Assembly (NCBI RefSeq): GCF_036924745.1
Contig: NZ_JAZHSD010000001.1
Location: 1,054,001 to 1,118,000 of the forward strand
Length of the DNA: 64,000 nucleotides
Reading direction: 5' to 3'
DNA from: Bradyrhizobium sp. AZCC 1693
Lineage (GTDB): Bacteria; Pseudomonadota; Alphaproteobacteria; Rhizobiales; Xanthobacteraceae
The position numbers and the translations under genes are program-made. Of the stretch, positions 3,640 to 34,869 are shown piece by piece; positions within the stretch are counted from its first letter, which is position 1; every line of letters starts with the position of its first letter. Below the pieces are notes generated by a model. It ran no database searches and had not been told where the DNA came from. It saw only the letters and a list, made by a program, of their open reading frames with translations.

Positions 3640-5970
3640 TCAGTTGCCGGTTGCGGCTTCGGTTTTTGTTTCATGATTGGTCGCGGCTGCCGCCTCATTG
3701 GTTTCGCCTGACGGCGCTTTTGTTTCGTCAATCTGCGGTTTGGCTTCCGCCTTCGGCGCATGGCCTGACACGGCGAACCGCAGCCGCATCCAGGCGCCGC
3801 GTTGCCCGGGCCGGAAATCGGAGGCATCCTTGAGTTCGATGCGGCCGCCATGGTCTTCCAGCACGCGCCCGACGATGGCGAGCCCGAGCCCGGTGCCCTT
3901 CTGGCGCGTCGTCACATAGGGCTCCAGCAGCCGCGCCCGGCTCACCTTCGGCAGACCGATACCGTTGTCGATCACGTCGATGACGATGTCGTCGTTTTCG
4001 CGCGCGGCGATCACATCGATGCGCCCCTTGCCGAGTTCTTCCGGCGGCACCTGCTCGATCGCTTCCGTCGCGTTCTTGATGATGTTGGTCAGCGCCTGCG
4101 AAATCAGCCGGCGGTCGAACTGCGCGCGCATCGGATCCTGCTTGATATCGGCCTCGATATCGAGATCGGGATGCCCGACCTTCATCAGGAATACCGCCTG
4201 CCGCACGGTGTCGGCGACGTCCTCGCCTTCCATGACCGGTTTTGGCATCCGTGCGAAGCGGGAGAATTCATCGACCATTCGCCTGATATCATCGACCTGC
4301 CGCACGATGGTGTCGGTACATTGTTCGAAGATGCCCTTGTCTTCGGTGATGACCTTGCCGAATTTACGGCGAATGCGCTCGGCCGAAAGCTGGATCGGCG
4401 TCAGCGGGTTCTTGATTTCGTGGGCGATGCGGCGCGCAACGTCGCCCCACGCCGATGTCCGCTGCGCAGAGACGAGCTCCGTGATGTCGTCGAGCGTGAT
4501 GATGTAGCTGTCGCGCGACTGGCTGGTCTGCTCGGCGCTGACGCGAACCGACAGGTTGCGCTCATGGCCGTCGCGCGAGATCGTGATCTGGCCCTGCACC
4601 AGCCGCTGCGTGCCCTCGCGCGCGGTTTTCATCATGTCGTCGAGCTCTGGCAGCACGTCCGACAGCGGATGGTCCAGCGTCTCGGACTCGGCATGGCCGA
4701 TAAGCTTCTCGGCCGAACGGTTCAGAATGCCGACGCTGCCGGAGGCGTCGACGCCGATGATGCCGGCACTGGCCGACGACAGCACCGCCTCGATGAATCG
4801 CCGGCGGCTGTCGATCAGGTCCGAGGCGTTCACCAGTTCATCACGCTGGGTGCGCAATTCGGCCGTCATCTTGTTGAAGGTCTCGCCGAGCTGCGCGAGG
4901 TCACCTTCAGACTTGTGCACCGGCACCTGGACATGCAGATCGCCGGTCGAAACGATATTGGCGGCGCTCATCAAATTGCGGATCGGCGACACCAGCCAGT
5001 TGGCGAAATTCAGCCCGATCAGCACCGACGCCATCAGGATGGTGAGCGCGATCACCGCAAACATCAGCGCGAAGGCGACCTGGATGCCGAGTCGGCGGGA
5101 TTCGATCTGGGCATATTCGGCGACGCTGGCCTCGGTCTGCTTGAGCTGCGCGACTACGCGCGGATCGAGCAGCCGCGCCACATACAGGAAAGTATCGTTG
5201 AAGGCGTGCAGCCTGATCACCGCCGCCACGTAGTTCGCGTCGGGGAAGACCGCAATCTGCGGCTCTTCTTCATTGACGTTGCTGAGAAAGTCCTGCGGCG
5301 GCGTCGTGAACTCCTGCTTGATGCCGGTTTGCGCCGTCTCCAGGATGGTGCGATCCTTGTCGATCAGCATGGCTCCCGGCAAATTCCGGGATGTGGCGCT
5401 CATCGTCAGCAATTCGCGAAACGACCGGCGGTCCTGGTCAAACAGCGGCCTCGCACGGGCAATGTCGTTGGCCATCCCCAGGATATCGCCGCGGATCAGC
5501 TGCGCATGTTCATAGGTGTAGGCTCTGGCAACGATCAGCGAATTCTGCATCACCTCGCGCGTCGGACCCGAGAACAGCCGGTCCAGGCCACGGTCGATGG
5601 TCACGTTGGCGACGATCGCGACCAGGACCGCCGGCAGCACGGCGATGATCGAGAACAGGCTGACGATCTGGACGTGCAGCCGTGCCGCGGCCCGGCCACG
5701 CCGCCGCGCCTGAATCACCAGCCAAACTTCGCGGACGATGATGCCGACCAGCAGCAGGATGGTCGCCGCATTGATCAGCAGGAACGAATAGACAACTTGG
5801 CGGGTCGGCTCGATCGGCGTCAGGCCGCTCAGCACCATGAAGGTCAGGAAGGCCGACAGCAGCGCGATCGCGACCGCAAACGGCGCCACCCACTTCCGCA
5901 GGATTCCCCCTCCGGATTCGGCAAGCGACGGGTCGAACGGTGGTGCCGAGGTCGTTTCTGCGGTGGTCAT
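3640..5970 (-). CDS. ntrY: Nitrogen regulation sensor histidine kinase NtrY
   Basis: A 776-residue membrane sensor kinase of the NtrYX system. The N-terminus has hydrophobic segments near residues 28-48, 60-80 and 100-122, then a long periplasmic-side loop, then a further membrane segment near 296-322. HAMP follows (about 323-375), then PAS (390-500). HisKA has the phospho-accepting H517 in [19 protein letters not shown]. The ATP-binding domain has an N-box TNIIKNATEAIE and a G-box KGTGLGLAIVGRVLEDHGG. The tail is rich in E, A, T and K and of low complexity. NtrY phosphorylates NtrX and may cross-talk with NtrC. A 166-base gap to ntrC suggests a possible internal promoter. Confidence 0.95.
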   Translation of the reverse strand: MTTAETTSAPPFDPSLAESGGGILRKWVAPFAVAIALLSAFLTFMVLSGLTPIEPTRQVVYSFLLINAATILLLVGIIVREVWLVIQARRRGRAAARLHVQIVSLFSIIAVLPAVLVAIVANVTIDRGLDRLFSGPTREVMQNSLIVARAYTYEHAQLIRGDILGMANDIARARPLFDQDRRSFRELLTMSATSRNLPGAMLIDKDRTILETAQTGIKQEFTTPPQDFLSNVNEEEPQIAVFPDANYVAAVIRLHAFNDTFLYVARLLDPRVVAQLKQTEASVAEYAQIESRRLGIQVAFALMFAVIALTILMASVLIGLNFANWLVSPIRNLMSAANIVSTGDLHVQVPVHKSEGDLAQLGETFNKMTAELRTQRDELVNASDLIDSRRRFIEAVLSSASAGIIGVDASGSVGILNRSAEKLIGHAESETLDHPLSDVLPELDDMMKTAREGTQRLVQGQITISRDGHERNLSVRVSAEQTSQSRDSYIITLDDITELVSAQRTSAWGDVARRIAHEIKNPLTPIQLSAERIRRKFGKVITEDKGIFEQCTDTIVRQVDDIRRMVDEFSRFARMPKPVMEGEDVADTVRQAVFLMKVGHPDLDIEADIKQDPMRAQFDRRLISQALTNIIKNATEAIEQVPPEELGKGRIDVIAARENDDIVIDVIDNGIGLPKVSRARLLEPYVTTRQKGTGLGLAIVGRVLEDHGGRIELKDASDFRPGQRGAWMRLRFAVSGHAPKAEAKPQIDETKAPSGETNEAAAATNHETKTEAATGN

Positions 5971-6136: not shown

Positions 6137-7579
6137 CTAGCCGCCGCTCCGGTAGACCTGAATATCGAGATCCCTGATCTTCTTCCGCAGCGTGTTGCGG
6201 TTGAGGCCGAGCAGGTCGGCCGCGCGGATCTGGTTGCCGCGCGTGGCCGCCAGCGCCGCGGTGAGCAGCGGCACCTCGATCTCCTTGAGGATGCGGTGGT
6301 AGAGGCCCGGCGGCGGCACGCCGTTCGGGAAGCCGGAGAAGTGCGAGGACAGGTAGGCTTCGACCGCGCCCCCGAGGTTTTCCACGCCCATCGGGGCATT
6401 GCTGCCCGACGTGACCGCCGGCGGCGCCAGTTCGCCATCGATCACCGAGGCCGTAATGACGTCCTGCGGATAAAGCGCAGCCAGCCGGCGCGCGAGGTTT
6501 TCAAGCTCGCGTACGTTGCCGGGCCAGCGGTGCTGCTTGAGCCGCTCCAGCGCCAGCGTGTCGAGTTTTTTGGGCGGCAAACCGTCCTTTTCGGCAAGCG
6601 CGAAGAAATGCCGGATCAGATCAGGCAGATCCTCGATTCGCTCCCGCAACGGAGGCAGGCGCAACGGCACCACGTTCAGGCGGAAGAACAAATCTTCCCG
6701 GAACAGGCCCTGCTGGATCAGGATGCGCAAATCCTTGTTGCTCGCCGCCACGATCCGCACGTCGGTCTTGATCGGCGTACGGCCGCCGACGGTGGTGTAT
6801 TCGCCCTGCTGCAGCACGCGTAGCAACCGCGTCTGCGCCTCCATCGGCATGTCGCCGATTTCGTCGAGAAACAGCGTGCCGCCTTCGGCCTGTTCGAATC
6901 GGCCGGAAGCGCGGGTATTGGCGCCGGTGAACGCGCCGCGCTCATGGCCGAACAATTCGGATTCGATCAGGTCGCGCGGGATCGCCGCCATGTTGACGGC
7001 GACGAACGGGCCGTTGCGGCGCTTGCCGTAGTCATGGAGCGCGCGCGCGACCAGTTCCTTGCCGGTGCCGGACTCGCCGGAGATCATCACCGTGAGGTCG
7101 GTCTGCATCAGCCGCGCCAGCACCCGGTAGATTTCCTGCATCGCCGGCGAACGCCCCACCAGGGGGATCGAATCGAATTCGGAATCGTCCGCCGCACTCG
7201 CCACCCGTTCCTTCGGCTCGGCCAGCGCGCGGCCGACGATGGTGATGAGCTCCTTCAGGTCGAACGGCTTCGGCAGATATTCATAGGCGCCGCGCTCCGA
7301 GGCCCGGATCGCCGTCATGAAGGTATTCTGCGCGCTCATGACGATGACGGGCAGGTTCGGCCGCATCTTCTTGATTCGCGGCAAGAGATCGAACGCGTTC
7401 TCGTCGGGCATCACCACGTCGGTGATCACGAGATCGCCCTCGCCCTGGCTTACCCAGCGCCACAGCGTCGCGGCGTTCCCGGTCAGGCGAACTTCATATC
7501 CGGCGCGCGAAAGCGCCTGGTTGAGAACCGTGCGGATGGCGGTATCGTCATCGGCAACGAGAATGCTACCTGCGGGCAT
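6137..7579 (-). CDS. ntrC: Nitrogen regulation response regulator NtrC (NR-I)
   Basis: A 480-residue sigma-54 enhancer-binding protein that activates nitrogen-scavenging genes when phosphorylated by NtrB. The receiver domain has D54 in [10 protein letters not shown] and K104 in LPKPF. The AAA+ domain shows Walker A GESGTGKE (168-175), an intact GAFTGA loop (215-220) and Walker [14 protein letters not shown]. The C-terminal Fis-type helix-turn-helix is [23 protein letters not shown]. All key residues are present, unlike NtrX next to it. The start is 9 bases after the ntrB stop, so the two are in one operon. Confidence 0.97.
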
Positions 7580-7588
7580 CGTTATTCC

Positions 7589-8764
7589 TCATCTTGCGTC
7601 CTGTGAGGCAGGCGGCAGCGTACCCGGAACGCCGTCGCGGTTGCTTTGGTCGAACTGTTTGGTGGGATTGAACATCGGCATCAGCACGCGGAACGTGGTC
7701 TTCCGCGGCTGGGATTCGCATTCGATGATGCCGCCGTGATCGCCGACGATCTTGGCAACCAGCGCCAGGCCGAGCCCGCTGCCGGTTTGCTTCGTCGTCA
7801 CGAAGGGATCGAACAGGTTCGGCAGCAGGTCTTCCGGCACGCCGGAGCCGTTATCCTTGACGCAGAATTCGAGCGGCAGCGACACCCGCGATTTCTTGCC
7901 CGGCACCGACAGGCGGACGCCGGGACGGAAGGCGGTGGTGAGCTGGATTTCGGCGTCCGAGCCGAGATCGGCCACCGCTTCGGCGGCATTCTTCACGAGA
8001 TTGAGGAACACCTGGATGAGCTGGTCCTGATTGGCCAGCACCGGCGGCAACGACGGATCGTAGTCCTCGATGAAGCGGATGTTGCGGGCGAAGCCGGACT
8101 GCGCCAGCCGTTTGACGTGGTCGAGCACGGAATGGATGTTGACCGCACCACGCGCCACCGGGCGATCGTCGCCGAACACCTCCATGCGGTCGACCAGGGT
8201 GACGATGCGGTCGGCCTCGTCGCAGATCAGCCGGGTCAGCATGCGGTCTTCGGATGAGGCCGCCTGCTCCAGCAACTGCGCTGCGCCGCGGATGCCGGAC
8301 AGCGGGTTCTTGATTTCATGCGCCAGCATCGCCGCCAGCGCGATCACCGAGCGAGCCGCGCTTCGATGCGTCAATTGCCGGTCCATCTTGTCGGCGATGG
8401 TGCGCTCCTGCAGCATCACGACGATGTGGCCGGGCCGTTCGGTGAGCGGGGCGACGTGCAGGTCGACCTGGCGGTCGCCGCCGATGCGGGGCGTACCGAG
8501 ATCAACCTTGTATTCGTTGACCGGCGAGCCGCTCGAGCGCACCTGGTCGATCAGCGCCAGCAGCGGGCTGCCGAACGGCACCAACTCCTTCAGCGACTGC
8601 CGGCGCAAAAATTGCGTCGAAATCTCGAAGAACGATTCGGCGGCGATATTGGCGTCGACGATGCGGCCGTCGGGCGCCACCAGCAGCACCGGGTTGGGCA
8701 GCGCGTTGAGAATGGCCTCACTGTCGGTGGGCACGGCGCGGCGGTGTTCTGCGACTGAACTCAT
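7589..8764 (-). CDS. ntrB: Nitrogen regulation sensor kinase NtrB (NR-II)
   Basis: A 391-residue soluble histidine kinase/phosphatase that phosphorylates NtrC under nitrogen limitation and is held in phosphatase mode by PII. A PAS domain (about 14-125, starting [25 protein letters not shown]) is followed by HisKA with H149 in [21 protein letters not shown] and a HATPase domain with [19 protein letters not shown]. The open frame runs upstream into dusB, but I chose the ATG at 8764 because it overlaps the dusB stop as ATGA, the usual coupling here. An ATG at 8779 would add five residues. Confidence 0.94.
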
Positions 8765-9795
8765 GCAGCAGCACTCCATGCAAAATCGTCGAACGCGTCC
8801 TGGAGCGAGCGATGCACGCGATGCGGATCCTCGGCCGTCAGAATCCTTTGCCGCCAGCCCTTCAACGTCTCGGCCGGCGCGCGGCTGCACTGGGCTGCGG
8901 TCTCCAGGGCCCAGCCGAGATGTTTTCGCGCATGCTTGAGCCCGATGCGCAGCCCGTAATGGCTGCAGACTTCGTCGTAGAGCGCGCGCACATGCGCGAG
9001 TTGTTCGGTGAGCGACGGCACAGTCTCCGCCTGTCCGGTTTCGAGCCGGCGGCCGATCTGCCCGGGCAGCCAAGGCTGGCCCTGCGCGCCGCGTCCGATC
9101 ATCACGCCGTCCGCTCCTGATACTTCCAGCGCCTGCACCGCCTTCTCGAATGAAGTGATGTCGCCGTTGACGACAAGTGGCACGGAAACCGCGTCCCTCA
9201 CCGCGCGCACGGCCCCCCAATCGGCTGTGCCCTTGTAGAACTGGCAGCGCGTGCGTCCGTGCACGGTAATCATCCGCACGCCGGCGCCTTCTGCGCGGCG
9301 CGCCAGTTCGGGCGCGTTGAGCGAATGATCGTCCCAGCCGAGCCGCATCTTCAGCGTCACCGGCACTTTCACCGCCGCGATCGTCGCTTCGATCAGCTTG
9401 AGCGCATGATCGAGATCGCGCATCAGCGCCGAGCCGGACTGGCCGCCGGTGACATGACGTGCCGGACAGCCCATGTTGATATCAATGATGTCGGCGCCGG
9501 CCGCTTCCGCAACCCGTGCGCCCTCCGCCATCCAATGCGCCTCGCACCCCGCGAGCTGAACGACGTGCGAGCCGATGCCGGCTGCCTCGCAGCGCAGAAG
9601 CGACATCGGCCGGCCGTGCACGAGTTCGTCGCTGGCGGTCATCTCTGAGACGACCAGTCCGGCGCCGAGGGTGGCGGCAAGACGTCGAAAGGGAGCGTCG
9701 GTGACGCCGGACATCGGCGCCAGAAGAACCCGGTTGGCGACAGCAATTTCGCCTATTTTCAACGGCTTAGAGCGTGAACTTTCCGGGCCGGTCAC
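8761..9795 (-). CDS. dusB: tRNA-dihydrouridine synthase DusB (NifR3)
   Basis: A 344-residue FMN enzyme that reduces uridine to dihydrouridine in the tRNA D-loop. The TIM-barrel family motifs are clear: [14 protein letters not shown] near the N-terminus, [14 protein letters not shown] with the catalytic cysteine C110, [10 protein letters not shown], and the flavin/RNA-binding [16 protein letters not shown]. It was called nifR3 because it heads the ntrBC operon in rhizobia and Rhodobacter, as here. The last base pairs overlap the ntrB start (ATGA). The upstream 255 bases separate it from divergent ispDF and should carry the operon promoter. Confidence 0.96.
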
Positions 9796-10050
9796 GGCGT
9801 TCTCATGGTTAGGGCGGCGGCGTCATTGCAACCGTCGGCGCATATTGTGAGCACAAATCTTGGGCAGTCAAGCTTCTTGCCTACACTTTAGACAGATCTA
9901 TCATTTGTGCAAGTGCACTGCAACAAAAACCGCTTTTCCCACAGGTGATGGGAATCACTCTGTTTTCCGTATTCGGCATGGTAAGGGCTGTGCGCCAGGC
10001 GCGGCCTGACGCCCCCTCCTCAACCCCGATTCGTTCGTATTTGAGTCCAG
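9796..10050. promoter_or_regulatory. Divergent promoter region dusB/ispDF with a partial dyad
   Basis: This 255-base spacer separates two divergent genes and must hold both promoters. It is locally A+T-richer than its surroundings at 9890-9930. A partial dyad at 9904-9927 has outer arms TTTGT and ACAAA around the perfect palindrome AGTGCACT. It could bind a dimeric regulator, but no known consensus is matched with confidence. Confidence 0.4.
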
Positions 10051-11232
10051 ATGCCCAGACCTGAGCGTACCGCAGCCATCCTCGTCGCAGCCGGACGCGG
10101 GCTTCGCGCCGGCGCCGGTGGGCCCAAGCAATACCGTGAGATCGGCGGGCAAACGGTCATCTTCCGCGCCATGGAGGCGTTCTGCCGGCATCCGGACGTG
10201 TTTGCCGTACAACCGGTGGTGAATCCCGATGATGCCGTCATCTTCAATGCGGCCGTCGCAGGACTGCGTCACCAGCCCCCCACCAATGGCGGTGCGACGC
10301 GTCAGGCTTCCGTGCATGCCGGTCTCGAGGCGCTGGCGGCGGAGAAGCCCGACATCGTCCTGATCCACGACGCCGCACGGCCCTTCGTAACGCCTGCGGT
10401 GATTTCGCGCGCGATCGACGCCGCCGGCCGCACCGGCGCGGCGGTCCCTGCGATTCCGGTCACAGACACGATTAAGCAGATCAGCGAAACCGGCGACGTC
10501 GAGGCGACGCCTGAACGCGCACGGCTGCGAATCGCGCAAACACCACAGGCGTTTCGCTTCGATGTGATTCTCGATGCCCATCGCCGCGCTGCGCGCGACG
10601 GCCGCAGCGATTTCACCGACGATGCGGCGCTCGCCGAATGGGCGGGATTGACGGTAGCAACCTTTGAAGGCGATCCTGCAAACATGAAACTGACCACATC
10701 AGAAGATTTCGTCCGCGAGGAAGCCCGCCTCGCCGCCCAGCTCGACGACATCAGGACCGGCACAGGCTATGACGTGCACGCCTTCGGCGACGGCGATCAT
10801 CTGATGCTCTGCGGCGTCCGTGTGCCGCACACACGCGGCTTTCTCGCCCATTCTGACGGCGACGTCGGCCTGCATGCCCTGGTCGACGCCATCCTCGGCG
10901 CGCTGGCGGACGGCGATATCGGTTCGCACTTTCCGCCGAGCGATCCGCAGTGGAAGGGCGCCCCATCCGATAAGTTTCTCAAATATGCCGTCGACCGCGT
11001 CACCGCGCGCGGCGGCCGGATCGCCAATCTCGAAGTCACGATGATCTGCGAGCGACCGAAGATCGGCCCGCTGCGCGATACCATGCGCGCGCGAATTGCC
11101 GAGATCGCCGGGCTCAGCATCTCACGCGTTGCCGTCAAGGCAACGACCAGCGAACGGCTCGGCTTTACCGGCCGCGAGGAAGGCATCGCCGCGACCGCGA
11201 GCGCCACCATCCGCCTGCCCTGGAGCGAGTAA
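10051..11232 (+). CDS. ispDF: Bifunctional IspD/IspF enzyme of the MEP isoprenoid pathway
   Basis: A 393-residue fusion typical of alphaproteobacteria. The N-terminal half is IspD (2-C-methyl-D-erythritol 4-phosphate cytidylyltransferase), with the CTP-binding loop [16 protein letters not shown] (12-27), [13 protein letters not shown] and IHDAARPFV. The C-terminal half from about residue 233 is IspF (2,4-cyclodiphosphate synthase), with [14 protein letters not shown] carrying the metal-binding Asp and His, the HSDGDV motif, and [16 protein letters not shown]. The two activities flank the IspE step. The ATG at 10051 starts exactly at the IspD N-terminus. cinA follows 3 bases after the stop. 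Confidence 0.97.
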
Positions 11233-29455: not shown

Positions 29456-30127
29456 CTAGAAAACGAAGGCCGGAACAAGTTCCATGCCGGGCAGCACCGG
29501 GGCAGCGGCATCGAACAGCGTCCGGTGACCGAAATCGCCATGCGCAGCGGTCACGATGGTAGCCCGTGCCGGCCGCGACATTGCAAAAACGCCCACCAAC
29601 CGGCCGCCACTGCGCAATTGCCCGTAGAGCTGTTCCGGCACGATCTCGGTCGCGCCGTTCAGCACGATGACATCGTAAGGCGCGCCCGCCGCGTCGCCAT
29701 CGGCCGGCGCCGCGGTGCGGACGGTGACGTTTCCACAGCCATTGCGGGCCAGGCTAGCCTGCGCCTTCGCCGCCAGCGCCGAATCGCTCTCGGTTGCGGT
29801 CACCTGGGGAGCGAATTGGGCGATCACGGCGGCGGCGTATCCGGTGGCGCAGCCGACCACCAGGACGCGGTCGCTCTGCTTGATGTCAGCCGCCTGCAGC
29901 ATCTTCGCCAGCACGGCCGGCTTGATCAGGAACCGCTTCGCCGAGTTGCCGTCGCTGACGTCGAGATCGAGGTCCAGATAGGCCAGAGCCTGCTTGTTTT
30001 CGGGAACGAAGGCCTCGCGCGGCACCGCCAGCATGGCATCGAGAATTCGGATATCGGTCACGTCGCTCGGACGCACCTGACCATCGACCATTTTCTGGCG
30101 CGCGGTCGCGGTGGCGGAACTTTGCAT
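29456..30127 (-). CDS. Protein-L-isoaspartate O-methyltransferase-like SAM enzyme
   Basis: A 223-residue SAM-dependent methyltransferase of the PCMT family, usually found just before tolC in rhizobia. N-terminal DGQVRPSDVTDIRILDAMLAVPREAFVP and LDVSDGNSAKRFLIKPAVLAKML fit the family. Motif I reads VLVVGCATGYAAA instead of the usual VLEIGTGSGYQAA, and the C-terminus is short. Catalytic repair of isoaspartate is therefore uncertain; the role in envelope biology suggested by the tolC linkage is unproven. The open frame extends far upstream, but the ATG at 30127 matches the family start. Confidence 0.88.
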   Translation of the reverse strand: MQSSATATARQKMVDGQVRPSDVTDIRILDAMLAVPREAFVPENKQALAYLDLDLDVSDGNSAKRFLIKPAVLAKMLQAADIKQSDRVLVVGCATGYAAAVIAQFAPQVTATESDSALAAKAQASLARNGCGNVTVRTAAPADGDAAGAPYDVIVLNGATEIVPEQLYGQLRSGGRLVGVFAMSRPARATIVTAAHGDFGHRTLFDAAAPVLPGMELVPAFVF

Positions 30128-30163
30128 TGGCGAGACCCCTAAAAGTCGAGCGGCGTCGCCACC

Positions 30164-30216
30164 CGGAGAGCTAGAACCGGGTGATCTTTGGTACAGGCCC
30201 CGCCAAAACGCAAGAT
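30164..30216. repeat. Copy A of a degenerate direct repeat upstream of pcm
   Basis: This segment aligns with 32104-32157 in the same orientation, 44 of 55 columns identical by my hand alignment, with runs ATCTTTGGTACA and CAAAACGCAA. It lies in the leader/promoter region of the pcm-like gene, just left of the XRE/HNH-like cassette. The two copies bracket about 1.9 kb. Confidence 0.65.
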
Positions 30217-30278
30217 CGCGATGATGCGTGGTCAGATGCTCGACTGCGTTTCTTGAGCGGATGACCATTCCTTGGCCT

Positions 30279-31361
30279 TTAGGTCTTGGTCTCGGTGTTC
30301 CGGATAGCTGCGTACTGCGCCGCCTCTTCAGCGTGGTCAATGAACTTGCCGTCACGGTCGAACAGCAGCGTGAACTTTCCAGCCTTGATGGCCGCCATGG
30401 TCTCTTCGTCGTATGAGAAGAGGCCTCCGAGAGCGTGCTCGTACAGTCGGCCGCGCAGTCCGTAATCCAGTTCGATAAGTTCTGGTTTCGGAGGTAGGTC
30501 CGAAGTGAGGCGGCACATCTCAATAGCCGGATCAATTTCAATATTAAAAACTGGTCGATCTTTCAGATGCATATTCAACCAAGTCATCTCAACGAACAGT
30601 TCGCGGAACTGAGGCTCAGAGACTGGTCCAGTAATTCTTTGCAACTGTCTTTCCATTAAACCAAGCACGCCTCCACAATCGTCGAAGACGGCGAGCAGGC
30701 CGACATCGTCAAGCCGAAGGAGCATCGTCTGTCCAATGAAGTTGTCGGCAAAGTCAAACCGGTGGTGTGCTGAAAACGTGGGCTTCACAGGAAGCACCAG
30801 CGTTCCACCAAAATTGTCGCGGTGTACCTCATAACCAGCGTAGAAGCACCTCGCAAACGTGTGGGTGTAGTGAAGTTGCTCCCACTGGTAGAAGTCACCA
30901 ATCTTTTGTTGGCCCTTCCGCGCATCCAGATGGAAGCGCATCGTGCGGTCTTTCAGATGGGTTTTTATGAAAATCAATCTCATCCAAACCGCCAGTGCCA
31001 GCGGATGGCCTTTGAGGAGCTTGACTAGTCCATCAAGGCCCGCGCCAACAGCCTGACTGACTGGCGTTTCGACTTCATCACCCATGAGGGTGTTGCACTC
31101 GGTGCAGCATGGGACTGTGAACCTGTCGTACCGCACGGTGGCTTTGTTGAACAGCGTGATGGATTTGTCGAACAGGTCTAAACGGCGCAGCAGCCACTCA
31201 GGAAACACGTGTTCGTTGTTAAACGGCTTCTCTCCGGGTCTCGCGCCGCAGATGAAGCAGCAGTCCCCAAGGCAAATATCGTCCAAAAATCGCTGCAGGC
31301 CAAAGTAGATTATCTTGCCAGTTGCATCGACGACTGTGTCGTCGGCATGTCTCGTCCACAT
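30279..31361 (-). CDS. HNH-like zinc-motif protein of unknown function, candidate nuclease
   Basis: A 360-residue protein I cannot place in a named family. The N-terminus carries an HNH-endonuclease-like arrangement: C35-x2-C38 (CCFICG), then N48/N49-E50-H51 in NNEHVFPEW, then C86-x2-C89-N90 (CCTECN). This C-x2-C / EH / C-x2-C-N pattern is typical of zinc-stabilised beta-beta-alpha-metal nucleases. The rest shows no membrane segments and no clear motif. The ATG follows the XRE stop directly (TAAATG), so the two are translationally linked. Base composition looks less G+C-rich than in neighbours, hinting at transfer. No methyltransferase gene is adjacent. Confidence 0.8.
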   Translation of the reverse strand: MWTRHADDTVVDATGKIIYFGLQRFLDDICLGDCCFICGARPGEKPFNNEHVFPEWLLRRLDLFDKSITLFNKATVRYDRFTVPCCTECNTLMGDEVETPVSQAVGAGLDGLVKLLKGHPLALAVWMRLIFIKTHLKDRTMRFHLDARKGQQKIGDFYQWEQLHYTHTFARCFYAGYEVHRDNFGGTLVLPVKPTFSAHHRFDFADNFIGQTMLLRLDDVGLLAVFDDCGGVLGLMERQLQRITGPVSEPQFRELFVEMTWLNMHLKDRPVFNIEIDPAIEMCRLTSDLPPKPELIELDYGLRGRLYEHALGGLFSYDEETMAAIKAGKFTLLFDRDGKFIDHAEEAAQYAAIRNTETKT

Positions 31362-31595
31362 TTAGACCACACCGATCTCATCCTCGAACAACTGCATAAC
31401 TTTGCTCGGAGTTGTCTTTAGCGCCTTCGACAACTTTAGAAGTATCGCAATTGTGGGAGATTTCAGCCCGCGCTCGATTTGGCTGACGTAAGTGCGATGG
31501 ATAGATGCCCGCTCAGCCAATTCCTCCTGCGACAGCCCGGCTGCTTGCCTGAGGCTTGAAATGACTTTCCCCAGTTTGGAATTGATTTTGTCCAC
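31362..31595 (-). CDS. XRE/Cro-type regulator resembling restriction-modification controller (C) proteins
   Basis: A 77-residue single-domain helix-turn-helix protein: LRQAAGLSQEELAERASIH, then RTYVSQIERGLKSPTI, then an oligomerisation helix. The size and the RTYxSxIER segment match controller proteins of type II restriction-modification systems, though many generic XRE regulators share them. The start is GTG at 31595 with no clear Shine-Dalgarno, compatible with a leaderless or short-leader message. The stop TAA is followed immediately by the ATG of the HNH-like gene. Controller-type boxes lie 24-46 bases upstream, so autoregulation plus timed expression of the partner is likely. Confidence 0.85.
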   Translation of the reverse strand: MDKINSKLGKVISSLRQAAGLSQEELAERASIHRTYVSQIERGLKSPTIAILLKLSKALKTTPSKVMQLFEDEIGVV

Positions 31596-31618
31596 ATCGT
31601 CATAGTCCGAACTTGAAC

Positions 31619-31641
31619 ACTAAAGTTCCACAGACTATAGT
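31619..31641 (-). promoter_or_regulatory. C-box-like operator of the XRE/HNH-like cassette
   Basis: Read on the minus strand there are two ACT-N2-AGT boxes, ACTATAGT (31634-31641) then ACTTTAGT (31619-31626), separated by 7 bases containing TGTG. The layout resembles restriction-modification controller operators (GACTTATAGTC-CGTG-like, from memory). A wider nested dyad exists too: ATAGTC/GACTAT outside GAACTT/AAGTTC, 31603-31638. It sits just upstream of the XRE start and between the XRE gene and the divergent HTH gene. Confidence 0.5.
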
Positions 31642-31689
31642 ATTCACGGCTGTTCAGTCGGGGCGGCTTATCCGGAGGGCTGGCTAACC

Positions 31690-31959
31690 GTGACCAAGAC
31701 GCGACCGAATGATGTGCCGCTGCCTCCACCGGAGCAGTTTTTCCTGACCCGGTTGGAGGCCTGCCGGGTGGCGCGCATCGGCCTCAACGCTTTCGACAAC
31801 GCGGTGAAGGACGGTCGCCTCGTGGTTCGTCGCAACGGCACCCGCATCATCGTCACACGCTCCAATCTGTACCGCTTCATGGGCGTGCCCAGCGAAAGTT
31901 TGCCTTCCACGCGGAAGACGCGCGCCCCGGCAGCCCCCGGCCCCGGCGCTGGTTGGTGA
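31690..31959 (+). CDS. Excisionase/AlpA-like helix-turn-helix protein
   Basis: An 89-residue protein with a MerR/excisionase-type winged-helix core: FFLTRLEACRVARIGLNAFDNAVKDGRLVVRRNGTRIIVTRSNLYRFM. Such proteins act as recombination directionality factors or small regulators in integrated elements. The tail is Pro/Ala-rich. The start is GTG at 31690, divergent from the XRE gene. No integrase is recognisable nearby, so if an element was here its recombinase is gone. The stretch from 31960 to 32204 holds no gene I can support. Confidence 0.7.
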   Translation: MTKTRPNDVPLPPPEQFFLTRLEACRVARIGLNAFDNAVKDGRLVVRRNGTRIIVTRSNLYRFMGVPSESLPSTRKTRAPAAPGPGAGW

Positions 31960-32103
31960 CCATTTTTTCTGTGTTTTGGAAGGCCATCAAGGGCAACGAC
32001 CTGAAGAAACAGGCGTTCTAGGGCGAAGTCTGGCGCGCGGTCGCAAAACCGGACATAGGCTAAGACCCTGAGAGCATGCGGCGCGGCCGCAAGAGAACTG
32101 GAA

Positions 32104-32157
32104 CCGAGAGCTGAAACCGCGGTCATCTTTGGTACAAGCTTCGGCAAAACGCAACAT
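32104..32157. repeat. Copy B of the degenerate direct repeat
   Basis: Partner of 30164-30216, same orientation. It lies downstream of the excisionase-like gene, so the pair frames exactly the XRE, HNH-like and HTH genes. Just left of it, at 32064-32079, is GACCCTGAGAGCATGC, which also occurs unchanged at 284-299. Confidence 0.65.
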
Positions 32158-34143: not shown

Positions 34144-34869
34144 ATGGGCAACGTATTTAAAATTCTGACCGCAGGCTTGCTCGCCGGTCTCGCGCATTCA
34201 CCGGCCAATGCAGCGCTGGTGAGCTTCACCGGCGACGGCAATTTTTCCAACGTCACGAATTGCAGCGGCGGCAGCCCCGGCTGTTCCATTACCAATAACG
34301 GCAATGTGCTCAACATGTCGGGCGCATCCAACTATCAGAACAAGCCGAGCACGCTGACCATCACGGACATCGTCGGCACCAACGTCCCGACCAATGCGAA
34401 CGATTACGTCATCGGCAAGATCACCTGGGTGAACCTGGCCACCTACAACACCGACCAGAACTTCAACGTCAAATACACTTTCTCGCTGAACTTCACCTCG
34501 CCGAGTAATGCGTTCGATGCTCAGGTGTTCAACCTGAACATCCAGCAGACGACCAACCCGTCGCCTGACAACGTGTTCAACATCACCCAGGCAACGCTCA
34601 ACAACCTTGGTCCGTTCACCCTCAATGGCGTTACGGTTTCCGACATTCACTTCGTTGAATATGGCGATGGATGGTACGACGGAAGCAAATGGGTGAATCC
34701 CGAGGGCGGAACGTCGACGCTCAAGATCATGGCAGACTTCAAGGACGTGATAGCGGCTCCCCCGGTCCCGGAACCGTCGACCTGGGCGATGATGATCCTC
34801 GGCTTCGCCGGCGTCGGCTTCATGGCCTATCGCCGCAAGCGGAATGGAAGCGCTCTCACGGCCGCCTGA
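34144..34869 (+). CDS. PEPxxWA-CTERM sorting-domain exported protein
   Basis: A 241-residue protein with a signal peptide ([23 protein letters not shown], cleavage near residue 23). The C-terminal sorting tag is [25 protein letters not shown]: a PEPxxWA motif, then a membrane helix, then a basic cluster. The mature region is a beta-rich Asn/Thr/Ser domain with one likely disulfide (NCSGGSPGC). Such proteins are handled by an exosortase and tied to exopolysaccharide or surface structures; no exosortase is in this window. An intrinsic terminator follows. Confidence 0.9.

What the first reader, a model, noticed from the sequence alone, without database searches (positions are those of the whole stretch)
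30279..31641. Controller-type regulator plus HNH-like protein: a possible methyltransferase-free restriction or defence module
Two genes are joined as TAAATG: a 77-residue XRE protein with the size and RTYVSQIERG segment of restriction-modification controllers, then a 360-residue protein with C35-x2-C38, NNEH and C86-x2-C89-N90, the layout of zinc-stabilised HNH nucleases. There is no methyltransferase beside them. Known controller systems delay nuclease expression behind a methylase. A controller/nuclease pair without one would be either a remnant, a modification-dependent (type IV-like) enzyme, or an abortive-infection device. The genes look less G+C-rich than their neighbours and sit among other accessory genes.
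Basis: partly seen in the sequence, partly recalled or inferred. Interest (0 to 1): 0.72.

Follow-up and report, generated by a model that had tools for sequence, protein, structure and literature searches.

The report
Mobile cassette with controlled HNH nuclease
A small DNA cassette in a soil bacterium carries a likely DNA-cutting protein behind a switch gene whose relatives sit in front of several different virus-defence systems in related bacteria, so the cutter is probably an undescribed virus defence.

Summary
In detail: a 77-aa XRE gene joined by TAAATG to a 360-aa CxxC/NEH/CCxxCN protein, GC-poor, no DNA methyltransferase. Both lie in a 1.9-kb insertion (about 30110-32044) between 16-bp direct repeats inside the 5' end of a conserved PCMT gene; 16 of 16 relatives examined lack it. 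It also holds a divergent, excisionase-like HTH gene; no integrase was found.

Seven XRE relatives found in whole genomes (62-69% identical) share one operator with the window (8 of 8). Five of the seven precede known or candidate defence genes: Hachiman, CBASS, RT-Toprim retron plus Shedu, a PtuA-like ATPase, GmrSD_N. Three of these cassettes lie between 39-50-bp tRNA-Met repeats, without an integrase. The operator resembles controller C-boxes.

The HNH family spans phyla; its Cys/E/H/N/E motif is invariant in 60 of 60 proteins, down to 18% identity. Its C-terminal domain matched no solved fold.

Best reading: an interchangeable, integrase-less defence cassette whose controller-like regulator doses a solitary HNH nuclease, probably anti-phage. 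Nuclease: likely. Defence: inferred from the shared controller. Against: two of seven XRE relatives lack such cargo, and HNH homologues elsewhere lack this XRE.

The parts
30094..30109 (.). Left copy of the 16-bp direct repeat TCTGGCGCGCGGTCGC, inside the 5' end of the PCMT gene
30110..32044 (.). Inserted cassette (right repeat copy included)
   Evidence: 16 of 16 relatives examined have a single, uninterrupted PCMT 5' end; the one-copy repeat site itself was read in three of them, with 1-2 mismatches
30094..30216 (.). Diverged second copy of the PCMT 5' end and promoter, which regenerates PCMT after insertion (PCMT start ATG now at 30127-30125)
   Evidence: Alignment with 32029-32157: score 88, best of 200 shuffles 38
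30279..31361 (-). HNH_5-type predicted nuclease, 360 aa; motif residues 35-98, C-terminal domain about 110-345 without a match
31362..31595 (-). Controller-like XRE regulator, 77 aa
31615..31643 (-). Operator/promoter ATACTATAGTCTGTGGAACTTTAGTGTTC, two ACT-NN-AGT boxes with a GT between them
   Evidence: Shared by 8 of 8 XRE loci; single match in window at 3 mismatches, 0 in 100 shuffles; 6 hits in 242 genomes, all at these XRE genes
31690..31959 (+). Divergent 89-aa HTH gene, excisionase-like
   Evidence: 14 of 16 related loci have a tyrosine-integrase match within 1.5 kb; two relatives hit Pfam HTH_17, the window gene itself does not
32029..32044 (.). Right copy of the 16-bp direct repeat; original PCMT start codon lies just outside at 32056-32054 (-)
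29456..30127 (-). Target gene: PCMT (protein-L-isoaspartate methyltransferase family)
   Evidence: (PF01135)

Best explanation
The window holds one member of a family of small integrase-less defence cassettes. Shown: insertion with direct repeats, no match to two tyrosine-integrase types in the window, divergent excisionase-like HTH gene, XRE gene with a family-wide operator, and related cassettes carrying other defence systems. Inferred: the XRE protein works like an R-M controller. It binds its own C-box-like operator, first activating and then limiting the XRE-HNH operon, so a potentially harmful nuclease appears late after entry into a new cell and stays at a low level. Inferred: the HNH protein is a complete one-protein effector. 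Its N-terminal zinc-stabilised HNH domain cuts DNA, and its C-terminal domain recognises what marks DNA as foreign or infected (phage modification or structure), because no methylase exists to mark self. Inferred: mobility uses the integrase of other islands in trans, the cassette keeping the attachment repeats and the excisionase-like gene.
For: Empty site and 16-bp repeat; regenerated PCMT 5' end. XRE relatives at 62-69% identity precede, on their own strand, HamA/HamB (L147), a CBASS cyclase plus 4TM effector (L156), RT-Toprim_I-C plus SduA (L148), a PDC-M01A/PtuA-like ATPase plus a GHKL-like ATPase whose Pfam score is below cut-off (L144), a GmrSD_N protein (L145). Small control: of seven remoter XRE homologues in the own genome, none has the operator (best 10 mismatches) and none was seen to precede a PADLOC-matched gene on its own strand. 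Repeats of 50, 50 and 39 bp (one mismatch in the last) around L147, L156, L148, no integrase match inside. Shared operator 8 of 8, specific in 242 genomes. HNH motif invariant in 60 of 60; HNH_5 in 73 of 75. Confident model (pLDDT 93.1). HNH relatives lie beside an integrase in L037 and an integrase-like gene in L094, and just behind an HsdR gene in L064.
Against: Only the window pairs this XRE with an HNH gene among 265 genus genomes searched with each protein; one further pair is only suggested by equal contig lengths, 2465. Two of seven XRE relatives (L143, L146) have no defence gene recognised downstream on their strand (L143 has RelA_SpoT and NA37 genes on the other strand), and L145 and L146 lack a match to the divergent HTH gene. 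Closer XRE homologues exist in the protein database (up to 92%) whose neighbours I could not see. XRE genes near defence genes may be common: two of the seven control XRE genes (L130, L131, the two most similar) stand tail-to-tail with a PADLOC-matched gene. HNH neighbours were not visibly enriched in PADLOC matches. PADLOC has no model matching the HNH protein. The window's HTH gene does not itself hit HTH_17. No binding, cutting or phage data exist.
Confidence: 0.6

Rival explanations
1. Toxin-antitoxin module: the XRE protein is an antitoxin that neutralises a toxic HNH nuclease, and any defence effect is secondary or absent.
For: Small XRE first, translationally coupled to a putative nuclease; matches to HipB- and HigA-type antitoxin models, well below their cut-offs.
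Against: HTH_3 covers residues 14-64 of 77, leaving little room for a toxin-binding domain. XRE relatives precede unrelated, mostly multi-gene systems. In the ORF set around the HNH homologues only two XRE matches besides the window's own were found, one two genes upstream in L049 and one 8 kb away in L069; small genes may have been lost by my ORF picking.
Confidence: 0.15
2. Modification-dependent (type IV-like) restriction enzyme: the C-terminal domain reads modified bases in phage DNA. This is a special case of the best explanation.
For: No methylase; separate conserved C-terminal domain with invariant W126 and Q251.
Confidence: 0.25
3. Remnant of a type II R-M system that lost its methyltransferase.
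For: Controller-like gene directly before a nuclease-like gene.
Against: Discrete insertion between direct repeats with no methylase fragment; the sister cassettes with recognised cargo carry other defence systems.
Confidence: 0.05
4. The HNH protein serves the mobile element (homing or transfer) and not defence.
For: HNH proteins are common in mobile elements (recalled); HNH relatives sit beside integrases in two loci.
Against: No match in 50,697 phage records at E<=1e-5, though one IMG/VR contig has a relative; in sister cassettes the same position is filled by defence genes.
Confidence: 0.15

Closest known systems
Type II R-M controller (C) proteins such as C.BclI, C.AhdI, C.Esp1396I
   Same: Small XRE protein; gene first in an operon with a nuclease-like gene; operator with two quasi-palindromes and a central GT. 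Papers describe GACTtatAGTC boxes around a conserved GT (PMC3115060, PMC4824078, passages read).
   Different: No methyltransferase; boxes here read ACT-NN-AGT; relatives stand before CBASS, Hachiman, retron and other genes.
BrxR/CapW-type regulators shared by diverse defence systems (PMC9122601, abstract and one section read) and RptR (PMC12255303, passages read)
   Same: One regulator family placed in front of defence systems (several kinds for BrxR, type I R-M for RptR).
   Different: BrxR has a WYL domain; this one is a bare 77-aa HTH of the controller type.
CIME, cis-mobilizable element (PMC5704250, passages read)
   Same: Attachment repeats kept, no integrase or transfer genes found.
   Different: Keeps an excisionase-like gene, is 2-5 kb and carries one defence operon under a common controller; not clearly a decayed ICE.
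Pfam HNH_5 (PF14279) proteins
   Same: CxxC, EH, CxxCN layout.
   Different: Window protein scores below the curated cut-off (20.9 against 27.5 bits) and carries a C-terminal domain of about 240 aa that I could not place.

Membership tests
R-M controller (C) protein | Small single-domain XRE/HTH_3 protein | tested here: met
   77 aa, PF01381 2.4e-17; best PDB match C.BclI
R-M controller (C) protein | C-box operator at its own promoter | tested here: inconclusive
   Conserved two-box operator resembles published C-boxes but binding is not shown
R-M controller (C) protein | Upstream of and coupled to a nuclease gene | tested here: met
   TAAATG junction to the HNH gene; nuclease activity inferred
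R-M controller (C) protein | Partner DNA methyltransferase | tested here: not met
   None in the cassette. So not filed as an R-M controller, only as controller-like
HNH (His-Me finger) nuclease, HNH_5 | Cys pairs, EH and CN motif residues conserved | tested here: met
   Invariant in 60 of 60; 73 of 75 hit HNH_5 at E<=0.01
HNH (His-Me finger) nuclease, HNH_5 | Score above the curated cut-off | tested here: not met
   20.9 against 27.5 bits for the window protein; 27 of the 120 listed homologues carry PF14279 in the precomputed column
HNH (His-Me finger) nuclease, HNH_5 | Beta-beta-alpha metal fold | tested here: inconclusive
   Model pLDDT 93.1; helix 87-106 carries N90 and E98; no coordinates given, no solved match
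HNH (His-Me finger) nuclease, HNH_5 | Nuclease activity | not testable with these tools
   -
CIME / integrase-less mobile cassette | Flanking direct repeats and an empty site in relatives | tested here: met
CIME / integrase-less mobile cassette | No integrase of its own | tested here: met
   No match in the 64-kb window to two tyrosine integrase types; other recombinase kinds were not searched for by model
CIME / integrase-less mobile cassette | Excision or transfer in trans | not testable with these tools
   -
BrxR-family regulator | WYL domain | tested here: not met
   No WYL family among the Pfam matches up to E 1
Type II toxin-antitoxin | Antitoxin with a toxin-binding part and a toxin needing it | tested here: inconclusive
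   HTH fills most of the protein; dependence not tested

The most novel reading that the evidence does not exclude
A previously unrecognised class of miniature defence cassettes in Bradyrhizobium and kin: excisionase-like HTH, a controller-type switch with its own dedicated operator, and one swappable defence operon, moved by integrases of other islands. The switch of restriction-modification systems has thus been reused as a general dosage and timing device for methylase-free immunity, and the HNH protein is a new single-protein defence system found across phyla.
Probability: 0.45. Interest if true: 0.82.

Novelty: new variant of a known kind. Interest (0 to 1): 0.66.

Why it matters
If true, one operator and one 77-aa protein mark defence cargo that existing models miss, giving a way to find new systems by their controller. 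It would show that controller-type switches are not tied to the methylase race of R-M systems, and it makes testable why systems such as CBASS or Hachiman would need delayed expression on entry. It also nominates a widespread orphan HNH family as an immune nuclease.

Tried and rejected

PADLOC scan of 103 nearest neighbours (of 105 selected; 2 over 1300 aa dropped) against 81 genes more than 6 kb away: of the 59 loci fetched, L063 was dropped as a near-duplicate of L062, and L070, L083 and L084 had no HNH ORF in my list. Each of the 25 families shown (of 44 near, 36 far) was matched by one member in both sets: not discriminating. NCBIfam named nothing for the HNH protein. XRE and HTH searches of plasmids gave 1 and 3 weak records, not followed. 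Other islands at the PCMT site: 15 genus genomes besides the own show two or more matches; in the 7 of these that I opened the extra matches were alignment pieces, not islands. Control for the XRE cargo: seven remoter XRE homologues of the own genome, nine neighbouring genes of at least 80 aa scanned; two genes matched PADLOC, both tail-to-tail with the XRE gene, none downstream on its strand.

Literature: ten searches (titles and abstract starts seen) showed no description of such cassettes or of controllers of non-R-M defence. The library lacks most subscription papers.

Full report
What is there. On the minus strand, a 77-aa XRE gene (31595-31362) is followed without a gap (TAAATG) by a 360-aa gene (31361-30279). 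The window lies in a 7.6-Mb single-contig genome; named homologues point to Bradyrhizobium. GC is 50.4% and 53.1% against 62.9% for the window.

A discrete insertion. Compared with six relatives and ten more, the stretch from 30110 to 32044 is extra: all 16 show a single, uninterrupted PCMT 5' end (one contig, L258, ends before the tRNA-Asn). The 16-bp sequence TCTGGCGCGCGGTCGC stands at both ends (30094-30109 and 32029-32044). I read the empty site in L149, L153 and L154, where it stands once with one or two mismatches. It lies near the start of a PCMT gene. The left border carries a diverged second copy of the PCMT start and promoter (alignment score 88, best of 200 shuffles 38), so the target gene is restored.

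Third gene. Between the XRE gene and the right repeat lies a divergent 89-aa HTH gene (31690-31959). It has no convincing Pfam match of its own and weak PHROG and PADLOC HTH matches. In the genus, 16 of 265 genomes have a match at E<=1e-4. Of the 16 matched places other than the window's own, 14 have a match to one tyrosine-integrase query within 1.5 kb (the query, from L164, has Pfam Arm-DNA-bind_3 and Phage_integrase). Two relatives score as HTH_17. The window has no match to this or to a second integrase type. I read the gene as an excisionase-like factor without its integrase; this is inference.

The controller. Searching 265 genus genomes at E<=1e-20 gave 7 genomes including the own; 391 genomes drawn from the family gave one more locus at E<=1e-15. 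All seven relatives (62-69% identical) were fetched and examined. The protein database holds 263 homologues, some closer (up to 92%), whose neighbours I could not see. Cargo on the same strand downstream: L147 HamA and HamB, with HamA apparently split over frames; L156 a CBASS cyclase and a 4TM effector; L148 RT-Toprim_I-C and SduA; L144 a PDC-M01A/PtuA-like ATPase with a GHKL-like ATPase (HATPase_c below cut-off); L145 a GmrSD_N protein. L143 has RelA_SpoT and NA37 genes on the opposite strand and L146 nothing recognised. So 5 of 7. As a small control, none of seven remoter XRE homologues in the own genome was seen before a PADLOC-matched gene on its strand, though the two most similar ones (L130, L131) stand tail-to-tail with such a gene, so closeness of XRE and defence genes alone is not specific; none of the seven has the operator.

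Divergent HTH of the sister cassettes. L143, L144, L147, L148 and L156 carry a divergent HTH gene of another family; for L145 and L146 none matched. That family is common (103 of 265 genomes). Of 20 high-scoring loci fetched, 19 contain a tyrosine-integrase match, beside the HTH gene where I read the listing. Seven integrase queries came from these same loci, two of them confirmed by Pfam, and the listing was cut at L213-L214. In the seven XRE loci the only match is a 100-aa fragment in L147 just outside its right repeat.

Repeats around sister cassettes. L147 is bounded by a 50-bp repeat of the tRNA-Met 3' half (4557-4606 and 9403-9452), L156 by 50 bp (4389-4438 and 7316-7365), L148 by 39 bp with one mismatch (3695-3733 and 8401-8439). 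L144 adjoins a tRNA-Met but no second copy was found in its contig end. None was found for L143, and only a 13-bp chance-level pair for L146; repeats in L145 come from a duplicated gene.

The operator. Just upstream of the XRE gene, 8 of 8 loci share ATACTATAGTCTGTnGnnCTTTAGTnTTC. In the window it is the only match with up to 3 mismatches, none in 100 shuffles. In 242 genus genomes with up to 2 mismatches there are 6 hits, all at these XRE genes, and none for the reversed pattern (L147's genome, G213, is not in that call's list). It contains two ACT-NN-AGT boxes with a GT between them. Published C-boxes are described as GACTtatAGTC pairs with a conserved central GT (passages of PMC3115060 and PMC4824078). 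The five best PDB matches of the XRE protein are C.BclI, C.AhdI and three chains named 'Regulatory protein'; PADLOC's best models are HTH_VI (a retron type VI part, recalled) and 'control protein'. The match is a resemblance; binding is untested.

The HNH protein. 180 homologues at E<=0.001 among the 8000 candidates scored. I aligned 60 proteins: the window, 50, five from genus genomes and three from plasmids, lengths 250-470 aa, L063 and shorter fragments left out, seven more distant plasmid hits not included. Down to 18% identity thirteen positions are invariant: C35, C38, E50, H51, W56, L70, C85, C86, C89, N90, E98, W126, Q251. HNH_5 is hit by 73 of 75 members at E<=0.01, though the window protein is below the curated cut-off. 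AlphaFold gives pLDDT 93.1. The C-terminal part alone folds with pLDDT 89.7 and has no solved match. No phage record matches at E<=1e-5; one IMG/VR contig does; ten plasmids carry mostly distant relatives. Genus distribution is patchy: 21 of 265 genomes, some hits partial or distant.

Link between the two genes. Outside the window the pair was not seen in a genome. The nearest homologues (HNH 91%, XRE 88%) are both on contigs of 2465 bases, which suggests but does not prove one contig. Genomes G041 and G213 hold both an XRE cassette and an HNH gene at distant places. This fits interchangeable modules and speaks against an obligate pair.

Mechanism and judgement. The best reading is a controller-dosed single-protein HNH defence in an integrase-less cassette. 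Shown: anatomy, insertion, shared operator, cargo of sister cassettes, motif conservation. Inferred: DNA cutting, controller kinetics, foreign-DNA sensing by the C-terminal domain, mobilisation in trans. Regulators shared by diverse defence systems are known (BrxR, PMC9122601), as are integrase-less elements (CIME, PMC5704250) and controllers (PMC4824078). Their combination here was not found in the ten paper searches listed under Tried and rejected; I therefore call it a new variant of a known kind.

Noticed in passing
L090:8078-9148 and 9226-10311; L094:7520-8521 and 8570-9694: Two genus genomes (G028, G142) carry two members of the HNH family end to end in convergent orientation, in L094 behind an integrase-like gene.
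   Followed up: partly
L064:2120-6459: In Qipengyuania the HNH ORF starts about 10-30 nt after a type I R-M HsdR gene, depending on the start codon.
   Followed up: partly
L037:8598-11083: In Reyranella the HNH gene directly follows a tyrosine integrase gene (4-nt overlap to 86-nt gap, depending on the start codon).
   Followed up: partly
L102:4955-6954: A very distant HNH relative on a Lactiplantibacillus plantarum plasmid follows a NOV_C (DUF3883) gene.
   Followed up: no
L143:5917-7970: RelA_SpoT and NA37 genes side by side near an XRE cassette, on the opposite strand; a possible defence pair.
   Followed up: no
L130 and L131 (own genome): The two XRE genes of this genome most like the window's stand tail-to-tail with a 2TM-effector-like gene and a PDC-M11A-like gene.
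   Followed up: no
34144-34869: GC-poor stretch with a PEP-CTERM-tagged protein.
   Followed up: no
L150, L152 against L149, L151, L153, L154: The tRNA-Asn beside PCMT is inverted relative to PCMT in L150 and L152, a sign that this spacer is recombination-prone.
   Followed up: no
L211 and L223: Two integrase matches close together near a tRNA-Met, in L211 each with an HTH match, looking like tandem islands.
   Followed up: no
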